Made by a program: the position numbers and the translations under genes. DNA of 64,000 nt from Tetrahymena thermophila SB210. Its lineage: Eukaryota; Ciliophora; Oligohymenophorea; Hymenostomatida; Tetrahymenidae. Where the stretch lies: positions 1 through 64,000 of the forward strand of contig NW_002476421.1 in assembly GCF_000189635.1 (NCBI RefSeq), given 5' to 3'. The notes below the pieces were generated by a model, which did no database searches, was not told the DNA's origin, and was given only the letters and a program-made list of their open reading frames with translations. Shown piece after piece: positions 3 through 50,258 of the stretch. Within the stretch, counting starts at the first letter, position 1; the number at the start of each line of letters is the position of its first letter.

Positions 3-407
3 CTTTTCCACTCTAAGATAATAAGTTGGTGGATTTTAGTAAATCTTATGCTTTTTAACTTTATAGTTTTAATTTATACGATTTATAGCTTATGCAGAGG
101 TATATATATCAAATACTTCAAAGTGAGATTTATAGTATCAAAAGTTTAAGAAACTGAGGTTTCAATTAAATGGAAGCAAATAAGAAACAATTTTAAGTTA
201 AAAAGATATATCATTTCCAAAAAAAATGCACCAATCCCTCTATCAGTGAATGAAATACTTAATTAAAGTGCTGATATTAGTTAATTTAGTAGCTATTCTT
301 CAAAGAATTTTGAAGAAAAATCTGATTGCATAAATGAATTATCTATTAAATGGTAAATAAATCCTCTTAAAGTGAGAGAGATAGCTCTTCCAAAAATTCA
401 AAAATGA
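3..407 (+). CDS. C-terminus of a large cysteine-rich multi-pass membrane protein (5' partial)
   Basis: Reading frame 3 is open from the window edge to a TGA at 405-407 with TAA/TAG read as Gln, giving 134 aa. It begins with a hydrophobic membrane segment (SWWILVNLMLFNFIVLIY), followed by a basic tail. The tail aligns residue by residue with the C-terminus of the 2595-aa protein at 25708-33654: IYIKYFKVRFIVS against LYIKFFQKRFIIS, and LSIKWQINPLKVREIA against LSIKWSMNPMHARHIA. This shows that another full-length, membrane-anchored member of the same family lies mostly to the left of the window. The tail should be cytosolic if the orientation matches the usual positive-inside rule, which is an inference. 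No start can be seen. Confidence 0.8.
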
Positions 408-3400
408 TTTCATTATAAATTTTTAAAATGCCTAAATATATATATGTCATGTTAATTTCCTTTTTAATATTTTTTAAGTGAAAAGTAAAAATAATTATTT
501 TTTTTATTTTAACTTTCCTTCAAAATAATTTTTTAATTTAGATGCTCATTTATTTAGGCTTATGAATTTCTAAATTTTTTATTATATAACCTACCTTATT
601 TAATTTTTTTTAATAAGTTCATAAAAATTAACCTTAATTAATCTATTATCTATATTTAGTAAATATAACAATTTTTATTCTATTTATTTTCTACAAAATT
701 TATAAAAACTTTACACTTTATGAAATTAGGAACTATTACAGTTTAATAAAAATTAAAAAAATTCATATAAATTTAATAGTTTATTTAATAATAATTTAAA
801 AAAATAAGATAAATCTTTGATAAAAATTTTTTTTTCTTTGTCAAAGAATTAAACTTTGATTAAACATTTTTAATTTTTTAATCATTCAAAACCTTTTTAA
901 AAACCTTTTTTTTTTTATTAAATATATGTTAAATATTTTTATTAAAAGTTTCAAAAGTAATATTTATTATTGTATTAAATATATATTTCCTACTCTAGAA
1001 ATAATTATCCGAGTATAGCTATATATCACTAAATTATTTTTTAGTAAATATCTCTATTTTTAATTACTATTGAGATATTAAACTTAATTTTCTTTGCTTT
1101 CTAATTTAACTTAACTATTTTTAGTCCTCCATTTTCTTTAAATATCTAATTGTGTTAGAACAATAAACTGGAAGTGATAAATTTACCTTAGGTACCTAAT
1201 TTTTATATTCTGTGATATTAGATTAAGTATTTATAATATAATTTTAAAAATATATTTTTGGCTATTCATTTTTTAAGCTAAGATCAACCAAACTAATTTA
1301 AATTTAAGCAATTTTTGTTTGTTGAAAAGTATCTTAATCCAAAGGTTTAAAAATTTAATAAAATTTAAAATGGCATAAATAATTTATATCGATTAAAATA
1401 TTTTCCTTAGCTATTATAAAGGATACTTTCTATTTTAGCATCAGAATGTTTCAAATTATTTGAGTAATTTTTTTCTAACATTATTGAATTTAAATATCAA
1501 AGCCTATTATTTAATTGAGTGGTTGTGTTTTTTTCTACTAAAGAAGCTTTTCATAGTGTCTTTACGATTGCTTATAAAATTAAATAAAAATAACTAATTT
1601 TTACATGAATACCTTTTAGAAATTCGGCAGTATTTGTTTTGTTTTTTTTCATTTACAAACTCTTTAATAGATCTAAAAATCTAAGGAGTTTCCTTTAACA
1701 ATTTCAATAGTTTTTCTTCTTCTTTGATTTTTTCACTTTGTTATATTTGACAGCTACTATTTATTCATTGTACTTATACTCAAAAACACATCCAAAACCA
1801 CATTATGAAATGTATGATGATAAGTATATCCTCATATTTTGAATTAATCCTAAATTAATCTCAGATTATCTGAATCAAATATCACTCATACTCTTCTTAT
1901 GTTTCTATAGTGCCTAATATTTAAGTTAAATGTCTTTTCATTGTTTCATGATTAGCAATAATTCCTTATATACAAAATAATTAAAATATTTAACATTTAT
2001 AATAAATTTTTGTTTAATTTGAATAATACATACTATTTATTTTATAAAAAATTTTTTTTATTTACCTTTTTATTTGTTTCTTTTCTTTTAATTTTTTTTT
2101 AATTAAATTATATAAAATTTTTAATTAAATAAGTTTTTTAAAATATTAATGATGAATAATTATTTTTTTATTTTCAATCATGATAATAAAACTAAAAATA
2201 GTTTATGATTTTCCTCAAAAACCTCAAAATTAATTTATATTAGCAATTTCACTTTATTAGATAACATTTATTTATTTTAGATTTTATTTAATTAATTCAA
2301 AAAATAAAAAACAAAATAAAATAAATTCTATATTTAACAGCTAAATAAAAAAGAAAAGAATATTTTTTAAAATTTATTAAATATAAAACTGATATATAAA
2401 AATTAAAAGATTAATAATTTTTTTTATATAAACTTTAAAAAAAATAAAATTTTCTAATATTTTATCAAAATACCTTCCTTCAAAAAGAAAATTTATCTTC
2501 TCATTATTAAATAAAAAGCATAATTCGCTTAGCTTTTATTTTACCTTTAGTTCAATTATATTTGTTTTACATTTTTCATAATAATATATTATTAAATATA
2601 TTTTGAAATTATAGATCTTAGCTTTTTCAAGTTGTAAGGCTGAAGAAAAAATTCTAACACATTCTATTAATATATCTAAAAGAATCTTTACATACCTAAA
2701 AATTATACAAAACATTAAAAAAAATAAAATAATGAAATTAGTTTGTATATTAATTATTTATAATAGATAAAAACATAAGAACACATTTTTGAGTAATTTC
2801 AAATTCTTGAAGCACTTTTTGTAATTAAATACTCAATTAAATTCTTTTTGTTTTTTTCGATATTTGAATATCAAAAAAAAAGGTAATATTTAAATGAATG
2901 ATTATAAAATACCTATTAAAAAATATCAATCTATTGTTTTTAATTTATAGAGTGAATCCAACTAATAATATATGTTTTAATGAAAATTTAATTTAATATC
3001 ATTCTTATAGATTTTGAAAAATGTTAAGTAAAGTATATTAGATTTTATTAAAATTATTTCTGAAATAATATCCTTAATTAATTTTATTTGTAAACTTATG
3101 AGTACAAATTCATTATACTATTTAAAAAAGAATAGATGAGAGAAATTAAGAAAATTATGGTAAATTATATTTAACTTATCTATAAATACTTTTAATATTA
3201 GATTTTTTACTTTTTTAGTGCCAAAAGAATAATAATTTTCTTACTTTATTTTTTTTCATTTAGTTTTCCCAATTTAATAAAATGATAATTAATGTTTTTC
3301 AAATAACTCAATTTGAATAAAATTTTAAAATTAAAATAATATTTAAAAATATGATGTATTTGACAGTAATTATGATTTTAAAAATGTATTTAATTTAAAA

Positions 3401-3656
3401 AAGGAAAGTTTAATTCAATTACTTTAAACATTTATTGACAAAAGAAAATTGCTCTCTTTATTAAATTATTAGTGTTGAATATAGATTAAGATATTTAATA
3501 ATTTTTTCGGATATTTAATTTCTAAACATTATTTATTCTAAAGTGATTTTTACCCACAAGAAGATTAATTTGTTTGATAACATTAGATAATGTACAATTT
3601 CATTTCGTGCTTATAATCTTATTTATAAAATAAGGAATAACAAAAAAGTAAGAAAG
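408..3656. other. Spacer with degenerate antisense kinase remnant; start of the ~10-kb duplicated unit
   Basis: There is no intact gene on either strand. Roughly 900-1260 resembles the sequence that follows the Cys-rich genes at 5400-5800, 15850-16090 and 21380-21600. Roughly 1260-3656 is repeated at 11050-13515 with small indels. A decayed protein-kinase-like stretch on the minus strand is listed separately. Confidence 0.6.
1100..1850 (-). pseudogene. Decayed protein-kinase-like remnant (copy 1)
   Basis: On the minus strand a Gly-rich-loop-like motif (CGFGCVFEYKYNEQIVAVK) is encoded around 1740-1825, including a VAVK lysine. After a frameshift comes an alpha-C-like stretch (EEEKLLKLLKETPQIFRSIK) at about 1650-1730. 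Further along are a catalytic-loop-like LAKENILIDINYL near 1380-1415 and a KIAQIQ..VDLS stretch near 1270-1330. The order matches a protein kinase N-lobe, catalytic loop and DFG region. At least two frame changes and in-frame TGA codons interrupt it, although introns could explain some of these. The same pieces with the same breaks occur at 11040-11700. What is seen is the motif order; kinase origin is inferred from it. Confidence 0.45.
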
Positions 3657-5197
3657 ATGTAAACTTACAAATATTTCCTATTCTTTTTAAGCATAAACTA
3701 TTCAATAATTTAAAGAGTACTTGCTCAAGTTTACTATAACTATCATGATTTAGGTAGCAATTTAAAAGAATTAAGTCCTTTATTAATCAGTGAAAATATA
3801 TCTAAATAAACCCATTCAATCAAAGTAGAATCAGAAGGTTTGAAAAGTCTTATAGGGGCTAGCTGCCAAGCTATATTTGAACTTAGTATCTCCTCACCTA
3901 GGTAAAGCTATATTTAAATCAATATTTAAGTAAATTTTACGAAATCTAAATATAATTAGGAATATATCTTTTATAATTTAAGATTAATCTTAGAGAATTT
4001 TACACTTAACTCTAAGTTAGTCAATATATAACTTCACTATATAGCAAATAGTTGACTAATCTTACTTAATTTACACTATATTTTCTTATGGAAATGAAGA
4101 AAACGTTTGGAACCTATTTAAAATTAAAGGATTAAGGTAAATAATTTTTCATAAATGGAATATCATCATCTAAATATCTTTGAATTTTATTTCAATTTAT
4201 TTTATAAATTATATTTGATTAAAATAGGTTATTCATAAATATAAATAATTATTAGCTAAAATAAAATATTTCTTATCAAAATATTAACTCTTCATTTCTA
4301 AGACTACTATTAACATGTAATGAATAATAATTCTTTCATCCTATTTATTAGCGCTGTGAAAATTGCCACCCTAATTGCAAAGGTTGCACAGAATATAAGA
4401 AGTGCAAAGATTGTTAAAAAGCACCTGGTAAAAATGAGAGGTAGGACTAACTTGCAGATGGGTTTTGTGATCCTTGTCCATCAGGATAAACTTGGAGACC
4501 TAATAATATATGTAATGGTTGTTCAGATACATGCAATTGTGATAATAAAAAATAATGCATTTCCTGTAAAGATAGTAGTAAAAATTAGCTTAATGTCGAA
4601 AGAAACACATGCGAACCATGTTAGTTAGACTAAAGATATTATATTGAAGGATAATTTTGCAAAAGATGTAATATTATTTGTAAGACATGCAAAGGACCAT
4701 CTGATAGTGATTGTTTATAGTGTATTGACGGAGCTAAAAAATATGAAGATGGAAGTTGCAAATATAACAATTAAAATCCTAATGATTGTGTTTCTCCTTA
4801 CAAATAAGATAAATCTTAAAATTGTGTTTTATGTAATTAAGATGGCTAGTATGCTAAAGATAAAAATTGTGTTGAATGTTAAGCTGATTTAAAATGTTAA
4901 AAGTGTTCACCTGAGACATAATGTACTTAATGCTCTTAGGGATATTTCTTAAAAGGAAACGTATGTCAGTAATGCCCACCTTAGATGAACTGCTTAACTT
5001 GCATAAATGAAAACTCATGCGAATCTTGTGAACCAGGTAAATTTATTTAAAAGGATGGAAAATGCGATAAATGTGAATAAGGATATTACATAGAAAGTAA
5101 ATATTGTAGATAATGTAAAATTGGATGTAGTAGCTGTACATCATACTTTAAATGTGATTAATGCATGCCATAGTTTTATAAATTAAAAACGGGATGA
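3657..5197 (+). CDS. Secreted cysteine-rich repeat protein, 438 aa (copy A1)
   Basis: There are three exons: 3657-3901, 3960-4136 and 4303-5197. The GT..AG introns are 58 and 166 nt, and the spliced length of 1317 nt is divisible by 3. The protein starts with a hydrophobic signal peptide (MQTYKYFLFFLSINYSIIQ). A short N-terminal domain of about 120 residues follows, and then Cys-rich repeats to the end (CENCHPNCKGC, CKTCKGPSDSDC, CEQGYYIE). The spacing resembles furin-like or growth-factor-receptor cysteine-rich repeats, which are widespread in ciliate surface proteins. No C-terminal membrane segment or GPI-type hydrophobic tail follows the last repeat (QFYKLKTG), so secretion is the simplest inference. 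It is a tandem paralogue of 13516-15499: the first two exons have identical lengths (245 and 177 nt) in both copies, while exon 3 is about 440 nt shorter here. The ligand and role are unknown. Confidence 0.82.
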
Positions 5198-7779
5198 TAA
5201 ATAACAAATTAATTCTAATATTATAATTTTATTTAATATTTATTTGTAATATTTAAAATAAAGTTTTATTTAAGCTAATAACTTAATTTACTTTAAATCT
5301 TTAAAAAACATTACTTTGATTTTTTGAGAGTTTTCAAAATTTTGTTTTAATAAAATATTTTTAAATTTTCATCCACTTTATTTGCTTAATCCTTGATATT
5401 AAGCATTTATTAGTATAAAATTAAAGTCAAACTTTAATTTAACACTAAAAAGTTTTATATTTTAAAAAAGTAATTAAATTTCTTAATGTTTTATAAAATA
5501 TTTTACTAACATCTTAAAAATGTTTACTTAATATATATTTGATAATATTTGTGTTAAATAAATCACTAAACTGTTTTTCAATAAAAATCTCTATTTTTCA
5601 TTTTAATTGAGAGATAAAAACTTAATTCTTTCTTTTCTAATTTATATTAATATTTTTAGTTCTCCATTTTCTTTAATATAAATATATATTGTTTTAGCAT
5701 AAAAAATAATAGGGAAGTGATAAATAGCAGTAATTGATACCTAATCTTTATATTAATCCATATTTTAGATAAATATTTTATAATATTTTAATATTATTTA
5801 GAAATATATTTTAGCTAATTTATAAAGCTTAGATCAATTTCATCTCAAGTATAAAATAGTTTTAATTATAAGCAAATTAAATTTCTCTTAAGAAATTAAG
5901 ATAAATAAAGATTTTATCAGAGATATTCTAAGCTAAACGAATAAAAAATATGTATTAATGAGCTTGAATATCATATATATATTTTTCATATATATTTTAA
6001 TATTCTTTTAGTTTTTATCTAAACTATTTTTAAAAATGTGTTTAAAGTAAAATAAAATTGTGGTTTGAAATTTACTTTCATAACTTTCAATTAAAATATT
6101 CTAACTGGAAGGAGTAGCCAAATTCTTAAATATTTGACTAATATAATTAATTTTACATGTTCATCTTTCAGAAAATAAGGTTATTGATCACTTACTAGAT
6201 TTATAATTAACCATTTTTCATAATATTTAATCTAATTAATATATATCTTTTTATGTTTGTGTTATATTTAAATATTAAAAGCACATGATCTTTCAGCCTA
6301 ATCTTAAGAGTTTTTAAAATCATATTTGATGAATTAATTATTCTCTTTTTGTATTTTAACAATTTCACATGAAGTTTTTTTAAATATACTTTTGAGATAG
6401 CAAAATGGTTAAGAATAGAATAGTTTGATTCAAAAAATATAAGAAAGCTAAAAGCAATAAAATATTTCGAAATATTTATATTTATGGACTGCTAACTAAA
6501 AAGTATTATCAGTTACTATTAAAATTTAAAATAAAATTTATGATATATATTAGCATGAAAAAATATTAGTAGCCCCTATTTTTATCAAGTAGAATTAATA
6601 AAAAAGGGTTCAATTAAAAAGTTAATTACTTAAAAAATTAAAAATTTAAAATAAAAAAACTTAATTTTATTTTTTATTTTAACATAAAAAAAACATTAAA
6701 TAAAAATTTTATTTTAAATTAAAAAAAATAGACAAACAATGAATTTAAAAATAAATTATTATAAAAAGATAGATTTTATAATTTATTTTTATATAAGTTA
6801 ATTAATATTTAATTCGATTGTTAATATTTTATTGCTTAAATTTAAAACTTAATGCAAAAATTTGTTAAATTATTTAGAGCTTGTTTTACAATTAATTTAT
6901 TTAGAAAAAATATAAATTAAATTTCTAATTATTTCAGTAAGTTTAACGTTTAAATTGTATTCACTAAAATATAATAAATAATAATTTTAATAATTTCAAT
7001 TAATTATTAAAATAGATTAGTTTTATAAATAAAATTTTTTTGACTTGAAACTGTAAAATTTTGTACTTATTTTTATTGATTATAAAAATAATTTTAATAA
7101 GCTTATTATAATATTTTTCTTAATGAATAATATATACTTTTATATCTATAACAACATTATAAAATTAAAACAGATATCTTACTCTGAGTATAATAAGCTA
7201 TATTATTATTGCTATTTAATTTTACAGCAGATAAAAATAATTTAGTAACTAATACTTTCTTTATTTTTAGATCTTAATAGAACAAAATCAAATTACTAGA
7301 ACCAATTACAAATTTATATTAGATCATTTTTCTTGGGTATTTTAAGGAATAAGAGGTAAGATTAATTAACGAGAGTAAAATTTTTATTTAGATAATAATT
7401 ACATTATTTTTATTTCTTTGATAGTTTTTCAAATTTAAAGAATTTGTTAATGTTTTAGGTTTATTAGGTTGAGATCTTCAATATTTTAGTTATAAACTGT
7501 GAATCCTCATTAATTAATTTTCATCCAATATAATTTTTACTATTTATCCATAGACTTTTAAGGTAATTCTCTTTAAAAAAAATAATTAAATTAAGTAAAA
7601 TTTTATAATTTGAGAAATCACAATAATTACTTATCTTTATATAAATGAAAATTAATTATTTGATTTGCATGAATAGCAAATTAAGATAAATATTGTTTCA
7701 GCCTGAAAATTTAATAATTAATTTTTTAGAAAAATTTACTAATTTTTTGTTTTTTTAAATGTTAAATAGAGGAATAAAA
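5198..7779. other. Duplicated 3' and 5' spacer between Cys-rich genes
   Basis: There is no intact gene. About 5198-6640 is a diverged copy of the sequences that follow the genes ending at 15499 and 21073. About 6830-7779 is a copy of the sequence upstream of the gene at 18602 and, in part, of 10300-11045. On the minus strand of 5580-5850, stretches such as KENGELKIL and RKERIKFLSL hint at more of the decayed antisense coding sequence, but no frame is sustained. Confidence 0.5.
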
Positions 7780-10214
7780 ATGCTAACTATTAGATTTAAT
7801 ACTTTAATCTTTTTAATAATCATTTTAACTTAAAAGATAGGTAATTCATTTTATAATTTTAAATATTTTCTTTATTTTAACATCTATTTATTTTTTCATA
7901 AGTATCTAGAACTTTTATATTTAGCGATTAGACCTTTTAGAAAGAATAGGAAATAATAATAAAATAAGAATTGTTCTCTTTTTAAGATACTTTATGCTCT
8001 ATTTAAATATAATTTGCAAGCAAATATTATAACCAACAGTAAATTAAAAGTTTTTTTTATAGTTTTAAATTAATATATTAAATAAATAAATAAGGTATAA
8101 TTTTACAAGTATTTAACCTGAAAATATTGATGTTTAAAGAATTATTTTAGAAGAAACTAAAGTACAGTTAGATTTTGTAAGAATTCAAAAATATAAAGAT
8201 ATTAAAATTAAAGTCATTTTATCTTACAACAATTAATATTTATAAAATTAGTAACCTATTCTTCAATACAAGTAAATCTGCTTTTTCTTTTTTTAAAATA
8301 AATTTAAATTAGTATAAATTTTAAAAATTCAGAACTCAATGCTTAAATTATACAAATAGCTAGATTCAAAAAAGATTACTATAAAAATCTTGTACTGATA
8401 ATACTTATTATGAAATTGTATACTAAGAATGTATGTAGTGTGGATAATATTGTTATGGTTGTACAAACTATTACTAGTGTAATGATTGTATTAAAAAAGG
8501 TATAAGTGGTAGATATGAATATTTATATGATAAAACTTGTGGTACCTGTAATGATGGATTATCTAGTTCAAAATTTAGTAATCAATGTTAAGGAAAGTCA
8601 GATAAATGTAAAGATATTTCAAGTGATGGTAAATAATGCAATAGTTGCAAAGATAGTAGTCTTTTTATTAACGAAGAATTAGCAACCTGTTAAAAATGTA
8701 ACACTAATAATGGGTGGTATATTAGTGGTTAGTATTGTAGAAGGTGCCCATATCAATGTTTATCATGTAAAGGACCTAATCCTAATGATTGCATTGCTTG
8801 TAGAGATAGATTATTGAAATATGATGATGGAAGATGTGAATTTAATCCTAATTACCGTTGCTCTGATGGTTATTATAAATCTTAATAAAATTGTATTAAA
8901 TGTCCAAGTAAATGTACAAAATGCACATCTGACAAAAAATGTGTTGAGTGTGAAGGAGGTTCTTTTATTATGCAGAATTAATTATGTGAAGATTGTTTGA
9001 TAGGTAAAGGGGAATTCTTTGATGGGAAATAGTGTTCTAAGTGTTCATAATATTGCTAATCTTGTTAAAATTTGTAAACATGCTAAGTTTGCTAAGATAG
9101 CTATTATTTGAAAGAAGATAACTCAGGATGTATGAGTTGTGCTTAAAATAGCTAATATTTTATTGATGAGAAATATTGTAAATTATGTGATTCTAAATGT
9201 TTAACATGCTCTGAAAATAAAACAAATTGTTTATCATGTGTATAAGGGCTTTATTTAACTAAAGACAGTAAGTGTGTTAAATGTGATTAAGACGGATTTT
9301 ACATTGATGGTTCAAAATGCTTGTCTAATGAATGCAAAGATGGCTTTTATTATAACTTAAGTACTAAGAATTGTGGTCCATGCTACAATAACTGTAAAAC
9401 ATGCAAAGGAGGTGGAGAAAAAGATTGTTTAACTTGCTTGAATTTGAATGAATATCTATTTCCAGTAGGATATTGTGGTATTTGTAGAGAAGGAGATGGA
9501 TATGTTTTAAAAGATCAATACTGTATTCAATGTGCTTCAAACTGCTAAAAATGTTCAGGTGATAGTGTAAGTGAATGTATTTCTTGTAAAAGTGGGTATA
9601 ATTTTATGACTGATGGAAGATGCGACAAATGTAATTAAAACCTAGGATAATTTATTGATGGGCTAACTTAAAAATGTAAGGATTGTCATGCTTCATGCAA
9701 AACATGCATAGGAGAAAGGGAGGATTAATGTGATGAATGTCATATAGAATATATAAAAGATGATTAAGAGAAATGTAGAATATGTAAAATAAATGAAGGT
9801 TAGTTTTTGGATCTAGTTGGCAAATGCTAAGTTTGTCATAGAAATTGTTAAACTTGTAATGGAAAAGAGGAAAATAAATGCTTAACATGTAAGCCAGGAT
9901 TTTATAAGGATGAAAGTGATTAAGGAAAATGCGTTTCCTGTGATACAGAAAATGGTTTTTTTATTTCTGAATAATACTGCAGAAAATGTCACTCAACATG
10001 TAAAAAATGCTTTAATTCTTAATCAGAAAATAGTTGTATAGAATGCAATGCTGACCTTTATCTTTTTACTGATGGGAGATGTGATGTATGTGGATAAGGG
10101 TTCTATGTTGAAAATAAAAATTGTAAATAATGTAAATTTGGATGTAAAAGTTGCAGATCAAACTTTAGTTGCGATGTATGTCTACCATAGTTTTACAGAA
10201 AAAAAATTAATTGA
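7780..10214 (+). CDS. Secreted cysteine-rich repeat protein, 751 aa (copy B1)
   Basis: There are four exons: 7780-7840, 7903-8038, 8095-8271 and 8333-10214. Their lengths are 61, 136, 177 and 1882 nt, and the total of 2256 nt is divisible by 3. The first three exon lengths and their phases are identical in the genes at 18602 and 25708. The signal peptide is MLTIRFNTLIFLIIILTQ. A conserved non-repeat domain of about 105 residues follows (FSDQTFQKEQE, VQLDFVRIQKYKDIKIKV). The rest is a continuous series of CxxC/CxxxC repeats (CMQCGQYCYGC, CKTCKGGGEKDC). The last module (CKQCKFGCKSC..CDVCLPQFYRKKIN) resembles the end modules of the other short family members. There is no membrane segment. The segment after about 9320 is closest to 29940-30640 of the giant gene, so the gene is a mosaic. 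Function is unknown; a secreted or surface-associated role is inferred. Confidence 0.85.
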
Positions 10215-13515: not shown

Positions 13516-15499
13516 ATGAAATCTAACAAATATTTCCTTTTATTTTTAACTATAATCTATTCTATAATTTAAAGAGTACTTGCTCAAGTTTACTATAACT
13601 TTCATGATTAAGGTAACAACCTAAAAGAAATAAGTCCTTTATTAATCAGTGAAAATATATCAAATTAAACACATTCAATCAAAGTAGAATCAGATCATTT
13701 GAAAAATTTTATAGGTGCTACCTACCAAGCTATATTTGAATTTAGTACCTCTTCACCTAAGTAAAACTATATTTAAATTAACATTTAAATAAATCTTACC
13801 AAATCTAAATATAATTAGGAATATATCTTTTATAATTTAAGATTAATCTTAGAGAATTTTACACTTAATTCTAAGCTAATCAATATAGAGCTTCACTATA
13901 TAGTAAATAGTTGAATAACCTTACTTAATTTATACTATATATTCATATGGAAAAGATGAAAGCGTTTGGAACTTGTTTAAAATTAAAGGATTAAGGTAAA
14001 TAATTTTTCATAAATGGAATATCATCATCAAAATATCTTTTAATTCTATTTCAATTTATTTTATAAATTCTATTTTGAATTAAAATAGGTTATTCATAAA
14101 TATAAATAATTATTAGCTAAAATAAAATAATTCTTATCAAAATATTAACTCTTCCTTTCTAAGACTACTATAAAAATGTGGTGAATAATAATTTTTTCAT
14201 CCTATTTATTAGCGCTGTGAAAATTGCCATCCTAATTGCAAAGGTTGTACAGAATACAAAAAGTGCAAAGATTGTTAAAAAAAAGCTTAACTTTAGAGGT
14301 ATGATCAGCTTGCAGATGGATTTTGTGATAATTGTCCATCAGGATAACGATATGACATACAAAATTAATGCAAAGGCTGTTCAGATACATGCAACTGTGA
14401 TAATAGTAATAAATAATAATGCATTTCATGTAAAGATAAAAGTAAAAATTAGCTTAATGTCGAAAAAAATACATGCGAACCATGTTAGTAAGACTAAGGA
14501 TATTATATTGATGGATAATTTTGCAAACGGTGTAATATTATTTGTAAGACATGCAAAGGACCATCTGACAGTGATTGTTTAGAATGTATTGATGGAGCTA
14601 AAAAATATGAAGATGGAAGTTGCAGATATAATAATTAAAACCCTAACGATTGCATTTCTCCTTACAAATAAGATAAATCTTCAAATTGCGTATGTAATTA
14701 AGATGGCTATTATCTTAAGGATAAAAATTGTGTTGAGTGTTAAGCTGATTTAAAATGTTAAAAGTGTTCAATTGAGACATAATGTACTTAATGCTATACA
14801 AATAAACCTGAAAAATATCTTCAAGATGGAAAAAAATGCTCTGATTGTAAATAAAACGGCTACTTTATAGATTAAAGTTAAAGCATTTGTGAAAATTGCA
14901 TTAAGAATTGTAGCATATGTAATAATAAATCTGAATGTTAAAAATGTAATTCTGGCTTTTATTTCTTAGAAGATAATAAATCTTGCTCTTAGTGCGAATA
15001 AGATGGATATTATATTGATAAATCTAATTAATTTTGCAATAAATGCCCACAGGAGAAGATGTGCTAAAAATGTAATAATAATTTGAAATGTACTGAATGC
15101 TAAAGTGGTCTCTACCTTTTTAATTCAGATAACTGTATTCCTTGCGATGAAGGATATTTTAAAAGTGGAAAAAATTGTTTTAAATGTGCAGATAATTGTG
15201 AAAAGTGTTCATCAGAATTTCAATGTATTTAATGCTCTTAGGGATATTTCTTAAAAGGAAATGTATGTCAGTAATGCTCACCTTAAATGAAGTGCTTAAC
15301 TTGTATTAATGAAATATCTTGTGAATCTTGTGAACTAGGTAAATTTATTTAAAAGGATGGAAAATGCGATAAATGTGAATAAGGATATTACATTGAAAAT
15401 AAATATTGTAGATAATGTAAAATTGGATGTAGTAGCTGTACATCATACTTTAAATGTAATTAATGCATGCCATAGTTTTATAAATTAAAAACTGAATGA
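13516..15499 (+). CDS. Secreted cysteine-rich repeat protein, 585 aa (copy A2)
   Basis: There are three exons: 13516-13760, 13819-13995 and 14164-15499. The introns are 58 and 168 nt, and the 1758-nt spliced length is divisible by 3. The signal peptide is MKSNKYFLLFLTIIYS, and the mature protein probably begins near QVYYNFHDQG. The N-terminal domain and first Cys modules match 3657-5197 closely. Exon 3 has extra Cys modules (CSDCKQNGYFID, CSQCEQDGYYID, CKKGY-type units) between the shared start and the shared end module (CDKCEQGYYIENKYCRQC). The paralogues therefore differ by insertion or deletion of whole repeat modules. There is no membrane anchor. Function is unknown. Confidence 0.85.
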
Positions 15500-18601: not shown

Positions 18602-21073
18602 ATGCAAACTAAAAGATTTAATACTTTAATCTTTTTAATAACCATTTTAACTTAAAAGATAGGTAATTCATTTTATAATTTTAAATATTTTCTTTATTTT
18701 AACATCTATTTATTTTTTCATAAGTATCTAGAACTTTTATATTTAGCGATTAGACCTTTTATAAAGAATAGGAAATAATAATAAAATAAGAATTGTTCTC
18801 TTTTTAAGATACTTTATGCTCTATTTAAATATAATTTGCAAGCAAATATTATAACCGATAGTAAATTTAAAGTTTTTTTTAATAGTTTTAAATTAATATA
18901 TTAAATAAATAAATAAATAAGGTATAAATTTACAAGTATTTAACCTGAAAATGTTGATGTTTAAAGAATTATTTTAGAAGAAACTAAAGTACAGTTAGAT
19001 TTTATAAGAATTCAAAAATAAAAAGATATTAAAATTAGAGTCATTTTATCATACAACAATTAATATTTATAAAATTAGTAACCTATTCTTCAATACAAGT
19101 AAATCTGTTTTTTCTTTTTTTAAAAAAATTTAAATTAAAATAAATTTTAAAAATTCAGAACTCAATGCTTAACTCATACAAATAGCTAGATTCAAAAAAG
19201 ATTACTATAAAAATCTTGTACTGGTAATACTTATTATGAAATTGTATACTAAGAATGTATGTAGTGTGGATAATATTGTTATGGTTGTACAAACTATTAC
19301 TAGTGTAATGATTGTATTAAAAAAGATTTAAGAGGTAGATATGATTATTTATATGATAAAACTTGTGGTACCTGTAATGATGGATTAAAGAGTTCAACAT
19401 TTAGTAATCAATGTAAAGGAAAGTCAGATAAATGTAAAGATATTTCAAGTGATGGTAAATAATGCAAGAGTTGCAAAGATAGTAGTCTTTTTATTAACGA
19501 AGAATTAGCAACTTGTTAAAATTGTGACACTAATAATGGGTGGTATATAAGTGGTTAGTATTGTAAAAGGTGCCCATATCAATGTTTATCATGTAAAGGA
19601 CCAAATCCTAATGATTGCATTACTTGTAGAGATAGATTAGTGAAAAATGATGATGGTACATGCTATAATCCTAATTAACTTTGCTCTGATGGTTATTATA
19701 AATCTTAATCAAATTGTGTTAAATGTCCAAGTAAATGTACAAAATGCGCATCTGACAAAAAATGTGATGAGTGTGAAGGAGGTTCTTATATTATGCAGAA
19801 TTAATTATGTGGAGATTGTTTGATAGGTAAAGGAGAATTCATTGATGGGAAATAGTGTTCTAAGTGTTCAGAATATTGCTAATCTTGTTAAAATATATAA
19901 ACATGCTAAGTTTGCTAAAATAGTTATTATTTGAAAGAAGATAACTCAGGGTGTATGAGCTGTGTTTAAAATAGCTAATATTTTATTGATGAGAAATATT
20001 GTAAATTATGTGATTCTAATTGTTTAACATGCTCTGAAAATAAAACAAAATGTTTATCATGTGTAGGAGGGCTTTTTTTAACAAGCGATAATAAGTGTAT
20101 AAAATGTGATTAAAATGGATTTTATATTGAGGGATCCAAATGTTTACCTTGCAATCCTGAATTAAATTGCTAAAAATGTAATAGCAGTAAATCTTGCACT
20201 GAGTGTAGTCCTGGACTATTTATTTAATCTGATATAAATAATGGATGTGGTATTTGTAAGGATGGTTTTTTCACATCAGGTAATTATTGCAAGCGTTGCA
20301 AAGAAAATTGTTATAAATGCAAAGATTTGAATAATTGTGAAAAGTGTGCTGATGGATTTTTTTCCAAAAATGGAATTTGTACTTTATGTCCTGAAGATCT
20401 AAAATGCAAAACTTGCTCAGATGAAAAAACTTGTACCAGTTGTAATAGTGGTGAATTTATTTAGCCTAATAATACATGTAATACTTGCAAAGAAGGATAT
20501 TACATAGACGGTATATTTTGTAAAAATTGTAAATAAAATTGTTTAAAATGTAGCTCATAGGATACTTGTAGCTAATGTACTGATGGATATTTTCTTAAAT
20601 CTGGTAACTGTGAATCTTGCAATCCTTCATTAAATTGCTTGACTTGCTCAGATAAACTTTCTTGCGCATCTTGTTCTAAAGATAAATATATAAATCCAGA
20701 TGGTAAATGTGATTTTTGCTTAGAAGGGTATATTATTGAAAATTAATTTTGTAAAAAATGTTCAGATAATTGTTAAAAGTGCTCATCAGTATCTTAATGT
20801 ATTTAATGCTCTTAGGGATATTTCTTAAAAGGTAATGTATGTAAATAATGTACTCCTTAAATGAATTGCTTAACTTGCTTAGATGAAAGCTCTTGTGAAT
20901 CTTGTGAACCAGGTAAATTTATTTAAAAGGATGGAAAATGCGATAAATGTGAATAAGGATATTACATAGAAAATAAATATTGTAGATAATGTAAAATTGG
21001 ATGTACTATCTGCACGTCATACTTTAAATGTGATTAATGCATGCCCTAGTTTTATAAATTAAAAACTGTATGA
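18602..21073 (+). CDS. Secreted cysteine-rich repeat protein, 762 aa (copy B2)
   Basis: There are four exons: 18602-18662, 18725-18860, 18922-19098 and 19159-21073 (61, 136, 177 and 1915 nt; total 2289 nt, divisible by 3). The signal peptide is MQTKRFNTLIFLITILTQ. Most of exon 4, to about 20920, is nearly identical to 26241-27990 of the giant gene, including long runs such as CNSSKSCTECS and CKEGYYIDGIFC. The last modules switch to the end shared with the A-type genes (FIQKDGKCDKC..QFYKLKTV) and stop. The gene therefore looks like a truncated relative of the giant gene with an end module grafted from another paralogue. There is no membrane segment, so secretion is inferred. Confidence 0.85.
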
Positions 21074-21771: not shown

Positions 21772-21871
21772 NNNNNNNNNNNNNNNNNNNNNNNNNNNNN
21801 NNNNNNNNNNNNNNNNNNNNNNNNNNNNNNNNNNNNNNNNNNNNNNNNNNNNNNNNNNNNNNNNNNNNNNN
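21772..21871. other. Scaffold gap (100 N)
   Basis: There are exactly 100 N. The 17 bases before the gap (ctaaacgaattaaaata) are repeated immediately after it, so the two contig ends overlap. Confidence 0.98.
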
Positions 21872-23740: not shown

Positions 23741-24047
23741 TTTTTTATTATCTGTTATTACATAAAAGGATTTATCATAAAAATATTACACAATTTTTAG
23801 GATTAAGACATAGTTTTTTAGATTGCTTCAATATAAGAATTCTTTAATTAAAAGTCCTTGTTAACTTCTATACTTAAAAATCTTATTATACTTTATGAGT
23901 ATTTTAGCAATTATTAAATTCATGCAAATTTTACAACTATTACGAATATTTACTAAAAAATAATTTATGTTTTAAGAATTTAAAATAATAATTTTATTTT
24001 TAAGATATAAAAATGTTGCATATATAAATATATTGAAGGAACAAATC

Positions 24048-24314
24048 ATGTTTCTAAATGAGAAAGATAGATATTATAAAAAGCTCTTAGATTTGCCTGC
24101 GACTAATCTAAAAGATAAGAGTAAATAAATTTGCCATAAATAAATTCGCTTTCTACTTTATTAACATTTTAATTACACATATTAAATTGAATTTGTACTA
24201 GAAAGAAGTGAATAAATTTATAGAACGATTATAAATTCATAGATGAATATGCAATTTAATGATATAAAAAGTTTTTTAAATTTATCCAATAAATATTTTT
24301 TGCATTTTAAATGA
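24048..24314 (+). CDS. Possible small protein, 88 aa
   Basis: This is an intact ATG-to-TGA frame under the ciliate code (MFLNEKDRYYKKLLDLPATN...). The residue composition looks coding (LPATNLKDKSKQ, IEFVLERSEQIYRT), but the product matches nothing I recognise. Because TGA is rare in this A+T-rich DNA, open frames of this length also occur by chance. No intron or neighbour supports it. It could be an exon or a relic. Confidence 0.3.
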
Positions 24315-25707: not shown

Positions 25708-28700
25708 ATGACTTAACTTTCATTTAATGTACTTTTCTATTTGCTAATCTTTTAAGTTTCTGAAATAGGTAAATAACCTACAAAATATTTAAATTTATTT
25801 TTACATTTTTATTAAAAGCATCAAGGGTTTTCAAATTTAGTGATTAGACTTTTTATAAAGAAGAAGAAATTATTATTTAATAGTCATTATTTTCTTATGA
25901 AGAAACTAATTGTTCAATTCATATAAAGTTTGGAAATTAAGATTTTTAGAATTTGTAATTTATTTTTTTTAAATTTTTCTATTTTAATAAATATTTTTTT
26001 TAGATTTAGCTTTACTAGTATTTATTCTGAAAATGTTGATGTTTAAAAAATTATTTTAGAAGAAACTAAAGTACAGTTAGATTTTATTAGAATTCAAAAA
26101 TATAAAGATATTAAAATTAGAGTCATTTTATCATACAACAATTAATATTTATAAAATTAGTAACCTATTCTTCAATACAAGTAAATCTGTTTTTTCTTTT
26201 TTTAAATAAATTTAAATTAATAAAAATTTTAAAAATTCAGAACTAAATGCTTAAATCATACAAATAGCTAGATTCAAAAAAGATTGTTATAAAAATCTTG
26301 TACTGGTAATACCTATTATGAAATTATATACTAAGAATGTATGTAGTGTGGATAATATTGTAAAGGTTGTACAAACTATTACTAGTGTAATGATTGTATT
26401 AATAAAGATATAACAGGTAGATATGATTATTTATATGATAAAACTTGTGGTACCTGTAATGATGGATTAAAGACTTCATTAACAAATAATCAATGTAAAG
26501 GAAAGTCAGATAAATGTAATGATATTTCAAGTGATGGTAGATAGTGTAGGAGTTGTAAAGATATTAGACTTTTTATTAACGAAGAATTAGCAACTTGTTA
26601 AAAATGTGACACTAATAATGGGTGGTATATAAGTGGTTAGTATTGTAGAAGGTGCCCATATCAATGTTTATCATGTAAAGGACCAAATCCTAATGATTGC
26701 ATTACTTGTAGAGAGAGATTATTGAAATATGATGATGGAACATGCTAATTTAATCCTAATTAACTTTGCTCTGATGGTTATTATAAATCTTAATAAAATT
26801 GTATTAAATGTCCAAGTAAATGTACAAAATGCGCATCTGACAAAAAATGTGATGAGTGTGAAGGAGGTTCTTATATTATGCAGAATTAATTATGTGGAGA
26901 TTGTTTGATAGGTAAAGGGGAATTTATTAATGGGAAATAGTGTTCTAATTGTTCAGAATATTGCTAATCTTGTTAAAATTTGAAAACATGCTAAGTTTGT
27001 TAAAATAGCTATTATTTGAAAGAAGATAACTCAGGGTGTATGAGTTGTCTTTAAAATAGCTAATATTTTATTGATGAGAAATATTGTAGATTATGTGATT
27101 CTAAATGTTTAACATGCTCTGAAAATAAAACAAAATGTTTATCATGTGTAGTAGGGCTTTTTTTAACAAGCGATAATAAGTGTATAAAATGTGATTAAGA
27201 TGGATTTTATATTGAGGGATCCAAATGTTTACCTTGCAATCCTGAATTAAATTGCTAAAAATGTAATAGCAGTAAATCTTGCACTGAGTGTAGTTCTGGA
27301 CTATTTATTTAATCTGATATAAATAATGAATGCGATATTTGTAAGGATGGTTTTTTCACATCAGGTAATTATTGCAAGCGCTGCAAAGAAAATTGTTATA
27401 AATGCAAAGATTTGAATAATTGTGAAAAGTGTGCTGATGGATTTTTTTCCAAAAATGGAATTTGTACTTTATGTCCTGAAGATCTAAAATGCAAAACTTG
27501 CTCAGATGAAAAAACTTGTTCCAGTTGTAATAGTGGTGAATTTATTTAGCCTAATAATACATGTAATACTTGCAAAGAAGGATATTACATAGATGGTATA
27601 TTTTGTAAAAATTGTAAATAAAATTGTTTAAAATGTAGCTCATAGGATACTTGTAGCTAATGTACTGATGGATATTTTCTTAAATCTGGTAACTGTGAAT
27701 CTTGCAATCCTTCATTAAATTGCTTGACTTGCTCAGATAAACTTTCTTGCACATCTTGCATTAAAGATAAGTATATATATCCAGATGGTAAATGTGATTT
27801 TTGCTTAGAAGGGTATATTATTGAAGATTAATTTTGTAAAAAATGTTCAGATAATTGTTAAAAGTGCTCATCAGTATCCTAATGTACTTAATGCTCTTAG
27901 GGATATTTCTTAAAAGGAAATGCATGTAAGTAATGTACTCCTCAAATGAATTGCTTAACTTGCTTAGATGAAAGTTCTTGTGAGTCTTGTGAGTCAGGTA
28001 AATTTATCAAAGAAGATAAAAGATGTGATAAATGCGAAGATGGGTTTTTTGTTGAAAATAAATATTGTAAAAAATGCAAAGATAACTGTGCTAAATGTAA
28101 ATCTTAGGGTGAATGTGAAAATTGCTCAACAAATTATTATTTTGAAGATATAGCTATTTCACCAAATTGCGTTTAATGTTAGGGTCCAAATAAATTCATA
28201 TTTAATAATAATACATGTAAAAATTGCAGGGATGGTTTTAATTGTTTTTCCTGTAACAACGAAAACTCATGCTTAACTTGTGACACAAATAGCTAATATA
28301 AATATTTATATCCTAAAGAAGGCAAGTGTGTAGATTGTAAGCAAGATGGGTTTTATGTTAACGATGATAAATGTTTATAATGTAATTAAAGCTATAACTG
28401 TCAAACATGTTCAAGTGATACAAAATGCTTAACTTGTTTAAAAGATTATTTTCTGAATAATTTAGAATAATGTGTTAAATGTGATTAGGATGGTTAATAT
28501 ATTGATGGGAATTATTGTAAATCATGTAGCTCTTCTTTTCCTAATTGCAAATAATGCTCCAAAGATGGATGCAAAGTGTGTCAAACTAAGTTTTATCTAT
28601 ATCCAGATAAAACATGCAGTGATATTTGCAGTGATACTTATTACATAAACCAGTAAGATTGTAAGCCTTGTGAAAACAATTGCAAAACTTGTGACAATTA

Positions 28701-31700
28701 ATTTGAATGTAAAACATGTAAAGATACATATTTTCTATAGCCTGATAAAACATGCAAATAAATGTGTTCAGATGGCTTTTATACAACTCCTGATAACAGG
28801 TGTCTGTAATGTAATCCAAAATTAAATTGTAAGACATGTTCTAATGATTCATCATGCAACGAATGCTAAGATTCATTCTTTAAAAATAAAAATAATATTT
28901 GTGTTCCTTGTACAGAGAGTGGCTTCTATAAAAAAGAAAAGCAGTGCTTGGAGTGTAAATAAGAATTGAATTGCTAGTCATGTGAAGAAGATAAATGCCT
29001 AAGTTGCAAATAAACAAATGAATATATTCAAGAAGATGGCAGTTGTGCTATATGCAAGGAAGATGGATACTTTATTTAAGATAAATACTGTAAAAAGTGT
29101 AACTCTTTAGCTAAATGTAAAACTTGTATAAATAAATCTGAATGCTTAACTTGTTATCCTCCTGATAATTTGTAAAAAGACAAAACTTGTGGGTAATGCT
29201 TGTAAGGTTAATATTCTGAGTTAGGTCTTTGTAAATCATGCAAACCAGATTATAATTGCAAAACTTGTGAAAACGGGAATAGTTGTTCATCGTGTCCTGA
29301 GAATCTTTTTATAGATTTCTAAAATAAATGTTAAGATTGTAAAGGAGATGGTATTTTTATTGAAAAAACAACAAATTAATGCATGAAATGCAACGAATTA
29401 AAAAATTGTAAAACATGCGAAAATGTAAATGATTGTATTAGTTGCTCAAGTGGTAGTTATTTATATGATGATAATTCATGTAAACCATGTGGTGATGGAT
29501 ACTTTATTGAAGGAAATAGATGTAAAAAATGTAATTAAACGTCTTTATTTTGTGCTACTTGCTCTAAAATAGACTCTTGCGATAGCTGCTTAGATGGATA
29601 TTATCTGGATTAAAATAAAATATGTGTCAAATGCGATTAAAATGGATAGTATAAAGAAGGAAAATAATGCAAAAACTGTGATCAAAAGTTAAATTGTTTA
29701 ACATGTTCAAATGGAAATTCTTGTGAAACTTGTAAAGGTGATGACAAAATTCAAGAAAACTTAAGTTGTGCTCCTTGTATTTAAGGTTATTTTGTCGAAG
29801 GAAAATTTTGTAAAAAATGCTAAGAAACTTTTAAATGTTAAACTTGCTCTAGTTTTAATGCATGTGACACCTGCTTCCCAGGAGATTTTTTAAAACCTGA
29901 TAAAAGTTGTGGAAAGTGTTAAGATGGTTTTTTCTAAAATTTAATCACTAAAAATTGTGATACATGTTATAAAAACTGTAAAACATGCAAAGGAGGTGGA
30001 GAAAAAGATTGTTTAACTTGCAATAATTCGAATGAATATCTATTTCCTGAAGGAAATTGTGGTATTTGCAGAGAAGAAGATGGATATGTATAGAAAGATA
30101 ATTACTGTATTCAATGTGCTCGAAACTGCTAAAAATGTTCAGGTGCTAGTGTAAGTGAATGTATTTCTTGTAAAAGTGATTATAGTTTTATGATTGATGG
30201 AAGATGTGACAAATGCGATTACAACTAAGGAAAATTTATTGATGAGGTTACAAAAAAATGTAGAGATTGCCATAACACTTGTAAAACCTGCAGAGGAGAA
30301 AGAGAGGATTAATGTGATGAATGTCAAACAGGTTATATAAAAGATGATTAAGAGAAATGTAAGATATGTAAAATAAATGATGGTTAATTTTTGGATCCAA
30401 ATGAAAAATGCTAAGTTTGCCATATAAATTGTTAGACCTGTAATGGAAAAGAGGAAAATAAATGCTTAACATGTAGGCCAGGATATTACAAAGATGAAAT
30501 CGATGTAGGAAAATGCGTTAAATGTGATACAGAAAACGGCTTTTTTATTTCTGGAGAATACTGCAAAAAATGCCACCCAACATGTAAAAAATGTCTTAAT
30601 TCTTCATCAGAAAATAGCTGTATAGAATGCAGTGGTGAAAGATTACTTCATAATGATAATACATGCAAAAAATGTGAGACATAGTAAGGATTTTATATTT
30701 AAGAAAATGGTATATTAAGCTTAAGAAAATGTTTGAATTGCCACATAGATTGTCTTACTTGTAAAGGAGGTAATTAAAATGAGTGTATTTTGTGCAAAGA
30801 ATAGCACACTTTCTTTGATGGGAATAGCATTTGTAGAAAGTGTCATAAAGATTGTGATACATGCAAAGGGCCTGATTAAAACTAATGTGAACGTTGCTTA
30901 ACACCAAAAAAATATTTATCAACAGATTCAAATATTTGCTCTACATGTAAATCCAATGAGTATAATGATGGTACCAGATGTAAGGATTGTTCTCCTAACT
31001 GCATGAAATGTGTATAATATGATATTTGTTTAGATTGTGGTAATGACACTCATCTTAAAAATGACAAATTTTGTGGCAATTGTGATTAAAATCAGTATGT
31101 AAACGATAAAAATGAATGCAGTCCTTGCCACTCAGACTGCTAATCATGTCTAGGTCCTAATAAAACTGATTGTAAAAAGTGCCAAGATGAAAATCTCAGA
31201 GTAAATAAAAACAGTATATGTGGTACATGTGATTCAAATTAATATTCTGATTAGTATAGATGCCAAGATTGTCATAGAGATTGTAAAAAGTGCAATGGAG
31301 GAAAAAATACTGAGTGTACTGAGTGTAATGATGCATCGAAATATTTTTGTAATAAGGAAGATATTAAAAATTTTTATATCAAGCATGGTATTGAATAAAA
31401 ATGCTAAAAATCTTGCTTGAAATGCCATGAAAATTGCTTAACTTGTTTTGGGGAAGGAAAGAATTAGTGCATGACATGTGCTATAGGTATTCTTTAAAAA
31501 GACTTTTCTTGCTCAAAAGAGTGTAATGAAGGTGAATTTTTTGACGAAACAACAAAATCTTGTGAGGATTGTCATAGCAGCTGCAAATCATGTTTCGGTA
31601 AGGGGAATAATTAATGTACAGAATGTTCAGACGATAAAGCATTTTTAGATTAATTTAATACTTGTGTTTATGACTGTGGTGAAGGATACAAAAAAAACGT

Positions 31701-33654
31701 TAAAACTAAAAAATGTCAACAATGCTTATACTAGAAAAATCCTGATAACACCATGGTCTGTGTGCTTGAATGCTTAGACAATTAATTTATTGATACAACA
31801 ACTCGTTATTGCACAAATTGTGAGAATAACTGTAGTAAATGCACTTCTTTAACTTTCTGCACAGAATGTGTTTAAGGTATGCATTTTTCAAGTAAAGATC
31901 AAGAAAGTTGTAAAGTCTGTGAAACAAATGAGTTTGTAACTGAGTAAAATGTTTGCTAAGTTTGCCCTTTCTTAAATTGTTTACAATGTAATCAAAAATA
32001 ATGCACAAAATGTATGTATAAATTTTTGGTGAATGATAAGACAGGATTATGTGTTTACGATAAAAGATATGACAGCTATGAATGTGAAGGAGTGAGCAGA
32101 GATGATGATAGCTGTTAGCAAGAAATAGATTTTATCAACAAATCAGATTTATTCATGAAGACTACTCAGTATACTTCGCTTAGTTTGTAAGTCGTTGGAT
32201 CATTTTATATTGGTCTTGGCTCATTTACTTAGGGTTCTATTTTATTTCAACAGGTTATAGGAAATAACATGCTTTAAGGAAAAGTTTTAAAGACCCTAAG
32301 CTTAGGCCCAACATATTACGATCAAAACTATCAAATGAATATACTAAGTTTGATCCCAAATCCTTTATCTTACATTTATTCGTATGATAATTTCGTCAAT
32401 AAAAGACCAGAAGACAATATGTCATTTAGGACTGAAACTTAATAAGAGACTAACTAAACAAGTAAATAAAGTTCTCATAGATTGCTTGAAAATTATCTTG
32501 TGAATAATGGCCTCTCCTTTATTTAATCTAGAGATAGCAGTGTTGGCTTTATAGATAGCTTTTTAAAGTACCTATTCGTCATGGGTTTTGTTGGAATAGT
32601 TATTCTGGTTTTCAATTTGATGAATCCAAACAACAACAAAATAATTCAATATTTTCATGATAACAAGTACTGCATTTTTATATAATTGCAAATGCTATTT
32701 TCTAACTTTATGTATGTGCAAATATTTAGATCAATCACCAGTATTGATTTCTATAATCTTTAAGAAGTTGACTACATCAGCATAGGCTTGCAAGTACTTT
32801 ATCTGATATTTTTCATCTTCTTTGCTCTTAGATTCCTTTAAAAGCTAATCAGATATAATCCGAAAAAAGGAAATTTTGAAGATATTAAAAATTATATTGT
32901 CCTTATATAAAACTTAATGATTAATGAACACTACAACAAGTATTACTGGTACTACTTTGAATTGAGGAAAGTATTTTAGTTATTGTTTATTTTTTTAATT
33001 GCAAATCCTCTAGCATCTTCAATCCTAGTTCTAATAACTAATTTCGTGTTTTTATTTTATCATTTCTATATGAAGCCTTTCATAGTCCTAACCGAATAAA
33101 GATATTACTATACCTTGGAAACTTTGAATTTCATAAACAGCATATTTGTATGTTTATACTTGATAACCAATTACAAAATATGTGCATGGTTGACATTACT
33201 AAGTCTGACAGTAATTAACGTAGTAATAGTAAGTTTCACTATCTTCCTTGTAATAAAAGGTTTATATATCAAATTTTTTTAAAAGAGATTTATTATTTCT
33301 ACTGACAGCAAGTCAGACATAGAATATAAGTGGAAATATATCAACTAAAATAATATAGGTTCTAAAAAATTCCTTAAATTAAAATAAATCTACAATAATC
33401 ATGTAAATGCATACAATACATAAAATAATAATAGTGCAATATTAAATAATTCTTCATTGAGTTCAAATTTAAATTCATTTAGCAATGAATAACCTGTTGA
33501 TGTTGGCGACTTATCAATCAAATGGAGTATGAATCCCATGCATGCCAGGCACATTGCAATGCAAGAATTTTCAAAACAAGACTCACAAAAAAAATAAATT
33601 GAAAATCCTTTTAAGTAGACCTATTCTATAACTTCAAAACAAACTTTCAAATGA
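25708..33654 (+). CDS. Giant cysteine-rich repeat protein with C-terminal multi-pass membrane domain, 2595 aa
   Basis: There are four exons: 25708-25768, 25819-25954, 26004-26180 and 26241-33654 (61, 136, 177 and 7414 nt; total 7788 nt, divisible by 3). Exon 4 was checked line by line and has no in-frame TGA. The signal peptide is MTQLSFNVLFYLLIF. The N-terminal domain (about residues 20-125) is shared with the shorter paralogues. Residues of about 130-2050 are furin/growth-factor-receptor-like Cys repeats with CxxC spacing. From about residue 2230 come several hydrophobic segments (YLFVMGFVGIVILVFNLM, GLQVLYLIFFIFFALRFL, LLFIFLIANPLASSILVLI, WLTLLSLTVINVVIVSF), then a cytosolic-looking tail of about 130 residues rich in Asn, Ser and Lys. 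The architecture suggests a large cell-surface protein with a huge extracellular stalk or ligand-binding region. A sensory or adhesive role is only a guess. Confidence 0.87.
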
Positions 33655-50149: not shown

Positions 50150-50258
50150 CACTTACTTAAATTTATGATTTGCTACAAAAGTTTGTTTTATAATAAATTA
50201 AATTGTTAAATATTATTTATTACTTAGAATTTATAAAAAGATTTCTTTTTAAAGCAAA

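What the first reader, a model, noticed from the sequence alone, without database searches (positions are those of the whole stretch)
3..33654. Six-member array of Cys-rich repeat proteins mixing secreted short forms with giant membrane-anchored forms
A membrane-type C-terminus (3-407), four short secreted forms and one 2595-aa membrane protein sit in one co-oriented array. Short forms share the signal peptide, N-terminal domain and repeats but end before any anchor. Such an arrangement could supply soluble and membrane-bound versions of one surface molecule (decoy and receptor, mating or immobilisation-type antigens). The structure is seen; the biological role is inference.
Basis: partly seen in the sequence, partly recalled or inferred. 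Interest (0 to 1): 0.78.

Follow-up and report, generated by a model that had tools for sequence, protein, structure and literature searches.

The report
Secreted and anchored receptor-like gene array
A run of at least eleven related genes in a single-celled pond ciliate makes both giant membrane-anchored and short anchorless versions of cysteine-rich surface proteins, which suggests, without yet proving, that the cell releases soluble partners or competitors of its own surface molecules.

Summary
The genome is most likely Tetrahymena thermophila. Window 3-407 is the tail of a long gene on contig C40, whose last 430 bases overlap the window's start (427/430). The array spans about 96 kb: at least 11 same-strand genes, five long with a multi-pass membrane domain and six short without one (four in the window). 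There are two N-terminal subfamilies, A (4 long, 3 short) and B (1 long, 3 short).

The ten genes modelled have signal-peptide-like starts and small introns in conserved places. None of the five short proteins with intact frames has a second membrane segment or a GPI-like tail, and I found no membrane exon after a short gene. All six short genes end in the same kind of cap; five also share 3' flank. Recombination probably moved a stop-containing 3' cassette between A and B genes. Substitution counts favour purifying selection in three of four short-short pairs.

A soluble-plus-anchored surface system is therefore plausible; the decoy/receptor role is inference. Immobilisation-antigen and mating-type-locus readings fit poorly. 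My literature searches found GFR-domain proteins of Tetrahymena but no description of this mixture. New variant of a known kind.

The parts
3..407 (+). C-terminal tail of long A-type gene L4; the rest is on contig C40:1029671-1040901, and the two contigs overlap by 430 bases
   Evidence: match to the membrane domain; 427/430 overlap
3657..5197 (+). g1, short A-type gene; exons 3657-3901, 3960-4136, 4228-5197; 463 aa, anchorless
7780..10214 (+). g2, short B-type gene; exons 7780-7840, 7903-8038, 8110-8271, 8333-10214; 746 aa; like g5 with an internal deletion plus a diverged version of the cap
13516..15499 (+). g3, short A-type gene; exons 13516-13760, 13819-13995, 14089-15499; 610 aa
18602..21073 (+). 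g4, short B-type gene; exons 18602-18662, 18725-18860, 18937-19098, 19159-21073; 757 aa; 91.9% DNA identity to g5 over 18683-20995, then the cap
25708..33654 (+). g5, long B-type gene; exons 25708-25768, 25819-25954, 26019-26180, 26241-33654; 2590 aa, 148 CxxC motifs
32050..33651 (+). multi-pass membrane domain and tail of g5 (4 segments over the hydropathy cut-off; exact number of helices not settled)
4934..5194 (+). short-form cap of g1 (last repeat plus anchorless end)
10071..10214 (+). short-form cap of g2, diverged version (28 of 48 residues identical to each of the other five)
15236..15496 (+). short-form cap of g3
20810..21070 (+). short-form cap of g4
21772..21871 (.). run of 100 N; the same 17 bases stand on both sides of it, so it probably joins overlapping ends and hides no gene

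Best explanation
An array of at least 11 tandem genes (about 96 kb, two adjacent contigs of what is most likely the Tetrahymena thermophila macronuclear genome) encodes two kinds (A and B) of receptor-like surface protein, each in a long and a short form. Long forms have a signal peptide, a small N-terminal domain and a long stack of CxxC growth-factor-receptor-like repeats on a multi-pass membrane domain. Short forms are the same N-terminal domain with 21-49 CxxC motifs (five proteins counted) and a conserved anchorless end. [Shown by sequence: gene models, lack of an anchor, array layout.] The short ends are a 3' cassette (last repeat, stop codon, 3' flank) that recombination attached to both subfamilies. 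[Suggested by the mosaic map.] The short proteins are released and act outside the cell on the same partners as the anchored forms, as competitors or soluble co-ligands in cell-surface recognition. [Inference.]
For: Ten modelled genes keep intron positions; the exons between exon 1 and the repeat exon have constant length (A 177; B 136 and 162) while introns vary. The five intact short proteins have no membrane segment beyond the signal peptide and no hydrophobic tail. A membrane-domain profile run over the open frames (40 aa or more, both strands) of the joined 99 kb hits strongly only the five long genes and one orphan fragment. Mosaic map: S2 = L4-like, then g5-like (94.4%), then g1-like; g2 and S1 = g5-like with an internal deletion plus cap. 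Of 29 genome matches to the cap, only six reach its last residues, and these are the six short genes; five of six share 3' flank. Selection: of four short-short pairs (three of them sharing genes), g1-g3 w 0.33, S1-g4 0.44 and S1-g2 0.44 have excess silent change (Fisher p 4e-9, 4e-5, 3e-4); 87-codon cap in two independent pairs w 0.13, p 3e-7. The g2 cap differs from the other five by dS 0.6-0.9 yet ends at the same place. Precedent: recombinant ectodomains of the GFR membrane proteins MTA/MTB, given in solution, changed pairing rates (PMC10901506, passages read).
Against: No transcript, protein or localisation data. The g2-g4 pair shows no significant constraint (w 0.67, p 0.08; N-terminal part 1.5 silent vs 13.5 replacement changes). 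For the last 40 and 30 codons alone, the part most specific to short forms, the test is weak (p 0.04 and 0.08). Gene conversion from long genes could imprint low dN/dS on dead copies. S2 has a frame break near the start of its repeat exon. B short forms and g5 have different exon 1 and 5' flank, so they may not be co-expressed. No partner or ligand is known, so the decoy/co-ligand step is a guess.
Confidence: 0.5

Rival explanations
1. The short genes are by-products of unequal crossing-over in a repeat-rich array: truncated copies with no function of their own, perhaps serving as donors for gene conversion that diversifies the long genes.
For: Extensive mosaic exchange among copies; frame breaks in S2 and L2; an orphan membrane-domain fragment between L2 and L3; g2-g4 without significant constraint.
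Against: Five of six short genes are open over 463-757 codons with matching introns; excess silent change in three of four short-short pairs; the same kind of anchorless cap in six genes, including one diverged version.
Confidence: 0.27
2. The short proteins are structural: soluble building blocks that assemble by disulfide-rich repeats with each other or with the long forms in a cell coat, mucocyst matrix or vesicle coat, with no decoy or signalling role.
For: Repeat-rich architecture and signal-peptide-like start; vesicles shed by T. thermophila carry mating-type proteins (PMC12029339 passages), which belong to the GFR-plus-TM class.
Against: No data here separate this from the best explanation; a conserved non-repeat N-terminal domain of type A or B in the ten modelled genes argues mildly for specific binding.
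Confidence: 0.15
3. A programmed-rearrangement locus like mat: short genes are incomplete segments joined to a membrane exon during development of the macronucleus.
For: Type-specific 5' parts and shared 3' parts in a tandem array resemble the germline mat array (PMC3608545 passages).
Against: Incomplete and complete genes coexist in an assembly of macronuclear size; all genes lie on one strand, not head to head; g5's membrane domain lies in the same exon as its repeats; the shared short 3' part ends in its own stop.
Confidence: 0.04
4. Assembly artefact: the short genes are wrong joins of long-gene pieces.
For: A contig break and a 100-N gap lie in the array; near-identical stretches are hard for short reads.
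Against: In the mosaic map copies differ from their best source by about 5-20%; the repeat-exon frames of all six short genes are open across the mosaic junctions; the cap and its flank recur in separate genes.
Confidence: 0.04

Closest known systems
T. thermophila mating-type proteins MTA/MTB and partner MRC1 (GFR domain plus five predicted TM helices)
   Same: Large extracellular part, cysteine-rich GFR/furin-like repeats, C-terminal multi-pass membrane domain; soluble ectodomains are bioactive when supplied (passages)
   Different: Head-to-head somatic gene pair with a separate terminal TM exon; about 80 aa of repeats rather than hundreds; incomplete copies are described only in the germline (passages). 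Sequence kinship of the membrane domains could not be tested.
Cysteine repeat modular proteins (CRMPs) of alveolates, incl. Tetrahymena CRMP1/2
   Same: Cysteine-rich (EGF-receptor-type) domain and several C-terminal TM segments (passages)
   Different: No anchorless paralogues mentioned in the passages read; homology not tested; GAIN-type domain not tested here
GFR-domain genes among species-specific genes of Tetrahymena (PMC6564038)
   Same: Same domain class and genus; the paper reports high tandem duplication among species-specific genes (passages)
   Different: The passages read treat the class by counts and mention no short/long mixture or shared stop cassette
Ser / immobilisation antigens
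   Same: Cysteine-rich ciliate surface proteins (start of abstract seen)
   Different: GPI-linked; the short proteins here lack a hydrophobic tail
Euplotes pheromones, soluble and membrane-bound forms of one gene (recalled; the passages seen do not state it)
   Same: Idea of soluble and anchored versions of one molecule in a ciliate
   Different: There one gene by splicing (recalled); here separate genes

Membership tests
GFR/furin-like-repeat multi-pass surface proteins of ciliates (MTA/MTB/MRC1/CRMP-like architecture) | Cysteine-rich CxxC repeats of growth-factor-receptor type | tested here: met
   21-203 CxxC motifs in each of nine proteins counted; Pfam VSP above cut-off in g5, g2, g3, g4 and below it in g1; GF_recep_IV only below cut-off, in g5 and g2
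GFR/furin-like-repeat multi-pass surface proteins of ciliates (MTA/MTB/MRC1/CRMP-like architecture) | C-terminal multi-pass membrane domain (long forms) | tested here: met
   4 segments over the cut-off in g5; domain aligned in 11 copies, 29-35% identity to g5; exact helix number unknown because structure prediction was off
GFR/furin-like-repeat multi-pass surface proteins of ciliates (MTA/MTB/MRC1/CRMP-like architecture) | C-terminal membrane domain (short forms) | tested here: not met
   no strong membrane-domain match downstream of a short gene; the weaker hits printed had E 0.0066 or worse (best 40 rows)
Mating-type genes MTA/MTB | head-to-head gene pair | tested here: not met
   all 11 genes on the + strand
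Mating-type genes MTA/MTB | sequence kinship to the MTA/MTB TM exon | not testable with these tools
CRMP | kinship to Tetrahymena CRMP1/2 and apicomplexan CRMPs; GAIN-type domain | not tested
   no CRMP sequence fetched; Pfam found nothing in the membrane part and its profile hit no PDB chain at E <= 1
Ser immobilisation antigens | GPI-attachment signal: hydrophobic C-terminus | tested here: not met
   mean hydropathy of the last 25 residues -0.38 to 0.19 in g1-g4 and S1
Soluble and membrane isoforms of one gene by alternative splicing | membrane exon downstream of the short stop in the same gene | tested here: not met
   profile scan of the joined stretch, both strands, open frames of 40 aa or more; transcripts not available

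The most novel reading that the evidence does not exclude
The array is a switchboard in which a movable 3' stop cassette turns giant anchored recognition receptors into secreted versions. The two N-terminal subfamilies each supply anchored and soluble members, forming a self/non-self or partner-sensing system of Tetrahymena separate from the mat locus, with soluble forms tuning it as added MTA/MTB ectodomains do.
Probability: 0.13. Interest if true: 0.75.

Novelty: new variant of a known kind. Interest (0 to 1): 0.47.

Why it matters
Soluble and membrane forms of a receptor are usually made by splicing or shedding (general knowledge). Here a ciliate appears to hold them as separate neighbouring genes whose ends are exchanged by recombination. 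In a genetically tractable organism, removal and tagging of short and long members would directly test whether soluble ectodomains regulate contact-dependent signalling, for which MTA/MTB already give a precedent. The contig adjacency and the S2/L2 frame breaks are also useful for annotation.

Tried and rejected
Pfam named only the CxxC repeats (Giardia VSP model; growth-factor-receptor and similar models below cut-off) and NCBIfam nothing (g5 only). I read the VSP match as repeat similarity, not kinship to Giardia. The membrane-domain profile found no solved relative; g4's repeats gave one weak match, R-spondin-1 at E 9e-4. The idea of a gene hidden in the N gap was dropped because 17 identical bases flank it. 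Literature searches for a secretome, for decoy forms and for furin-like gene clusters in Tetrahymena listed no paper on this array. Comparison with other Tetrahymena species was not tried: by their descriptions the collections hold prokaryote, viral/phage, plasmid and metagenome records.

The test for short forms in the C156 array is only partial. One DNA query (46 matches) shows repeat clusters leading up to each of the four membrane-domain copies there and no cluster without one; a match on C140 was not followed.

Limits of the selection counts: 14 pairs were run, on at most the first 700 residues; codons in poorly aligned stretches (local identity under 55%) were dropped; S2 was left out of whole-gene pairs for its frame break; L1 was not modelled; Fisher inputs were rounded by hand; pairs are not independent except where stated. 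Searches of the whole genome score only the best candidates, so copy numbers are lower bounds (150 of 213 candidates scored); the 23 cap matches outside the six short ends were not checked for stops.
Full report
Setting. The window is bases 1-64000 of contig C126 in a 101.0 Mb, 445-contig genome. The ciliate code fits. A stretch of its telomerase protein matches PDB chain 6d6v_A at all 135 aligned residues. That this entry is Tetrahymena thermophila is recalled; on that ground I take the species as most likely T. thermophila and, from the size, the macronuclear genome.

What is there. All genes of the finding are real open frames on the + strand. A whole-genome search with the membrane part of g5 found 18 matches, several at the right end of contig C40; a search with g1's repeats found more of the same family there. 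I fetched C40:976000-1040923. Its last 430 bases match the first 429 of the window at 427 of 430 aligned positions, the differences lying within the first 60 bases. So the C-terminus at 3-407 is the end of a long gene on C40, and the array runs over both contigs: L1, L2, L3 (long), S1, S2 (short), L4 (long), g1-g4 (short), g5 (long). From L1's start to g5's stop this is about 96 kb. Sequence upstream of C40:976000 was not read, so 11 is a minimum.

Gene models. Ten of the eleven genes were modelled; L1's N-terminus was read but not modelled. A-type genes have two small introns before the repeat exon, B-type genes three. Middle exons keep their lengths (A 177; B 136 and 162) while introns vary by a few bases. 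The models of L2-L4 cover only their large repeat exon; L1-L4 continue in a further frame with the membrane part. S2's repeat exon does not join in frame to its upstream exons, and L2 has a break in its repeats near C40:998.1-998.8 kb. The A-type N-domain was found in seven genes and the B-type in four, all in this array. A and B N-domains show no significant kinship (hhalign probability 0.1), but the repeats that follow do (E 7e-14). A-type short and long genes share the signal peptide and 5' flank; g5 differs from the B short genes there.

Short versus long. g1-g4 and S1 have 463-757 residues, a signal-peptide-like start, no other hydrophobic segment over the cut-off and no hydrophobic tail. 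This was judged by hydropathy, not by a trained predictor; g1's start is the weakest. A profile of the membrane domain from 11 copies was run over open frames of 40 aa or more on both strands of the joined stretch. It hits the five long genes and one orphan fragment at C40:1002685-1003556 strongly. The other hits among the 40 printed had E of 0.0066 or worse; the best of these is on the minus strand between S1 and S2. I count none as a membrane exon.

How short forms arose. Self-comparison shows a mosaic. g4 follows g5 at 91.9% identity up to 20995 and then has the cap. g2 follows g5, skips about 2.7 kb of it, follows it again and ends in a diverged cap. S1 follows g5 with about 0.4 kb skipped. 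S2 is L4-like, then g5-like at 94.4%, then g1-like. Five short genes of both subfamilies (g1, g3, S2; g4, S1) share the cap and, in the map, roughly 0.7-1.4 kb beyond the stop; ungapped identity over the first 300 bases past the stop is 76-96%. g2 shares only the cap. Of 29 genome matches to the cap only the six short ends reach its last residues; the matching repeat in g5 reads on. The g2 cap shares 28 of 48 residues with each other cap at dS 0.6-0.9, so an anchorless end at this point seems older than most of the exchanges.

Selection. Of four short-short pairs, three show significantly more silent than replacement change, and one (g2-g4) does not. The seven short-long pairs give w 0.28-0.43 and the three long-long pairs 0.28-0.33. 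The 87-codon cap gives w 0.13 in two independent pairs (p 3e-7); the last 40 and 30 codons alone give p 0.04 and 0.08. Gene conversion may bias all of these. I read this as moderate evidence that short genes are working genes.

Function. The anatomy says soluble and anchored ectodomains carrying the same N-terminal domain within each subfamily. In T. thermophila, purified ectodomains of MTA and MTB, which also carry a GFR domain and TM helices, raised pairing when given to cells of another mating type and at first lowered it when given to cells of their own; no costimulation markers were seen (PMC10901506, passages). CRMPs, another GFR-plus-TM class, act in exocytosis (PMC9670195, abstract and passages). 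GFR genes are one of the seven top classes among species-specific Tetrahymena genes (PMC6564038, passages). None of these tells what this array recognises.

Control. A different array on C156 with four membrane-domain copies shows repeat clusters leading up to each copy in one DNA search, with no sign of short forms. The letters of that array could not be read, so this is weak.

Verdict. Observation confirmed and extended; interpretation partly supported; novelty at the level of gene arrangement, not of protein class. On print: the searches listed no paper on this array; only listings were seen for most hits, and the library lacks most subscription journals.

Noticed in passing
C40:1002685-1003556 (L043:6686-7557): Orphan fragment of the membrane domain between long genes L2 and L3, 85-89% identical in DNA to L2-L4 and 78% to L1.
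   Followed up: partly
window 38804-40387, 47850-48878, 50169-51302, 59438-60454: Four genes with IBR (RBR-type ubiquitin-ligase) domains downstream of the array, of eight open frames scanned; some of the DNA there is duplicated.
   Followed up: partly
window 40926-46159: Stretch of diverged repeats of roughly 300 bp, present in two blocks (about 40.9-42.6 and 45.0-46.2 kb).
   Followed up: no
window 62674-63999 (-): DNA photolyase/cryptochrome-family gene running off the window end.
   Followed up: no
window 57319-57717: Tandem duplication of 198 bp at 96.5% identity inside a 633-aa open frame without a Pfam match.
   Followed up: no
window 53931-54003 (-): tRNA-Lys with anticodon CTT.
   Followed up: no
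C40:917038-921492: Another cluster of CxxC-repeat matches about 55 kb upstream of the array; it may belong to a further relative.
   Followed up: no
C156:235657-321145: A second array with four copies of the same membrane domain.
   Followed up: partly
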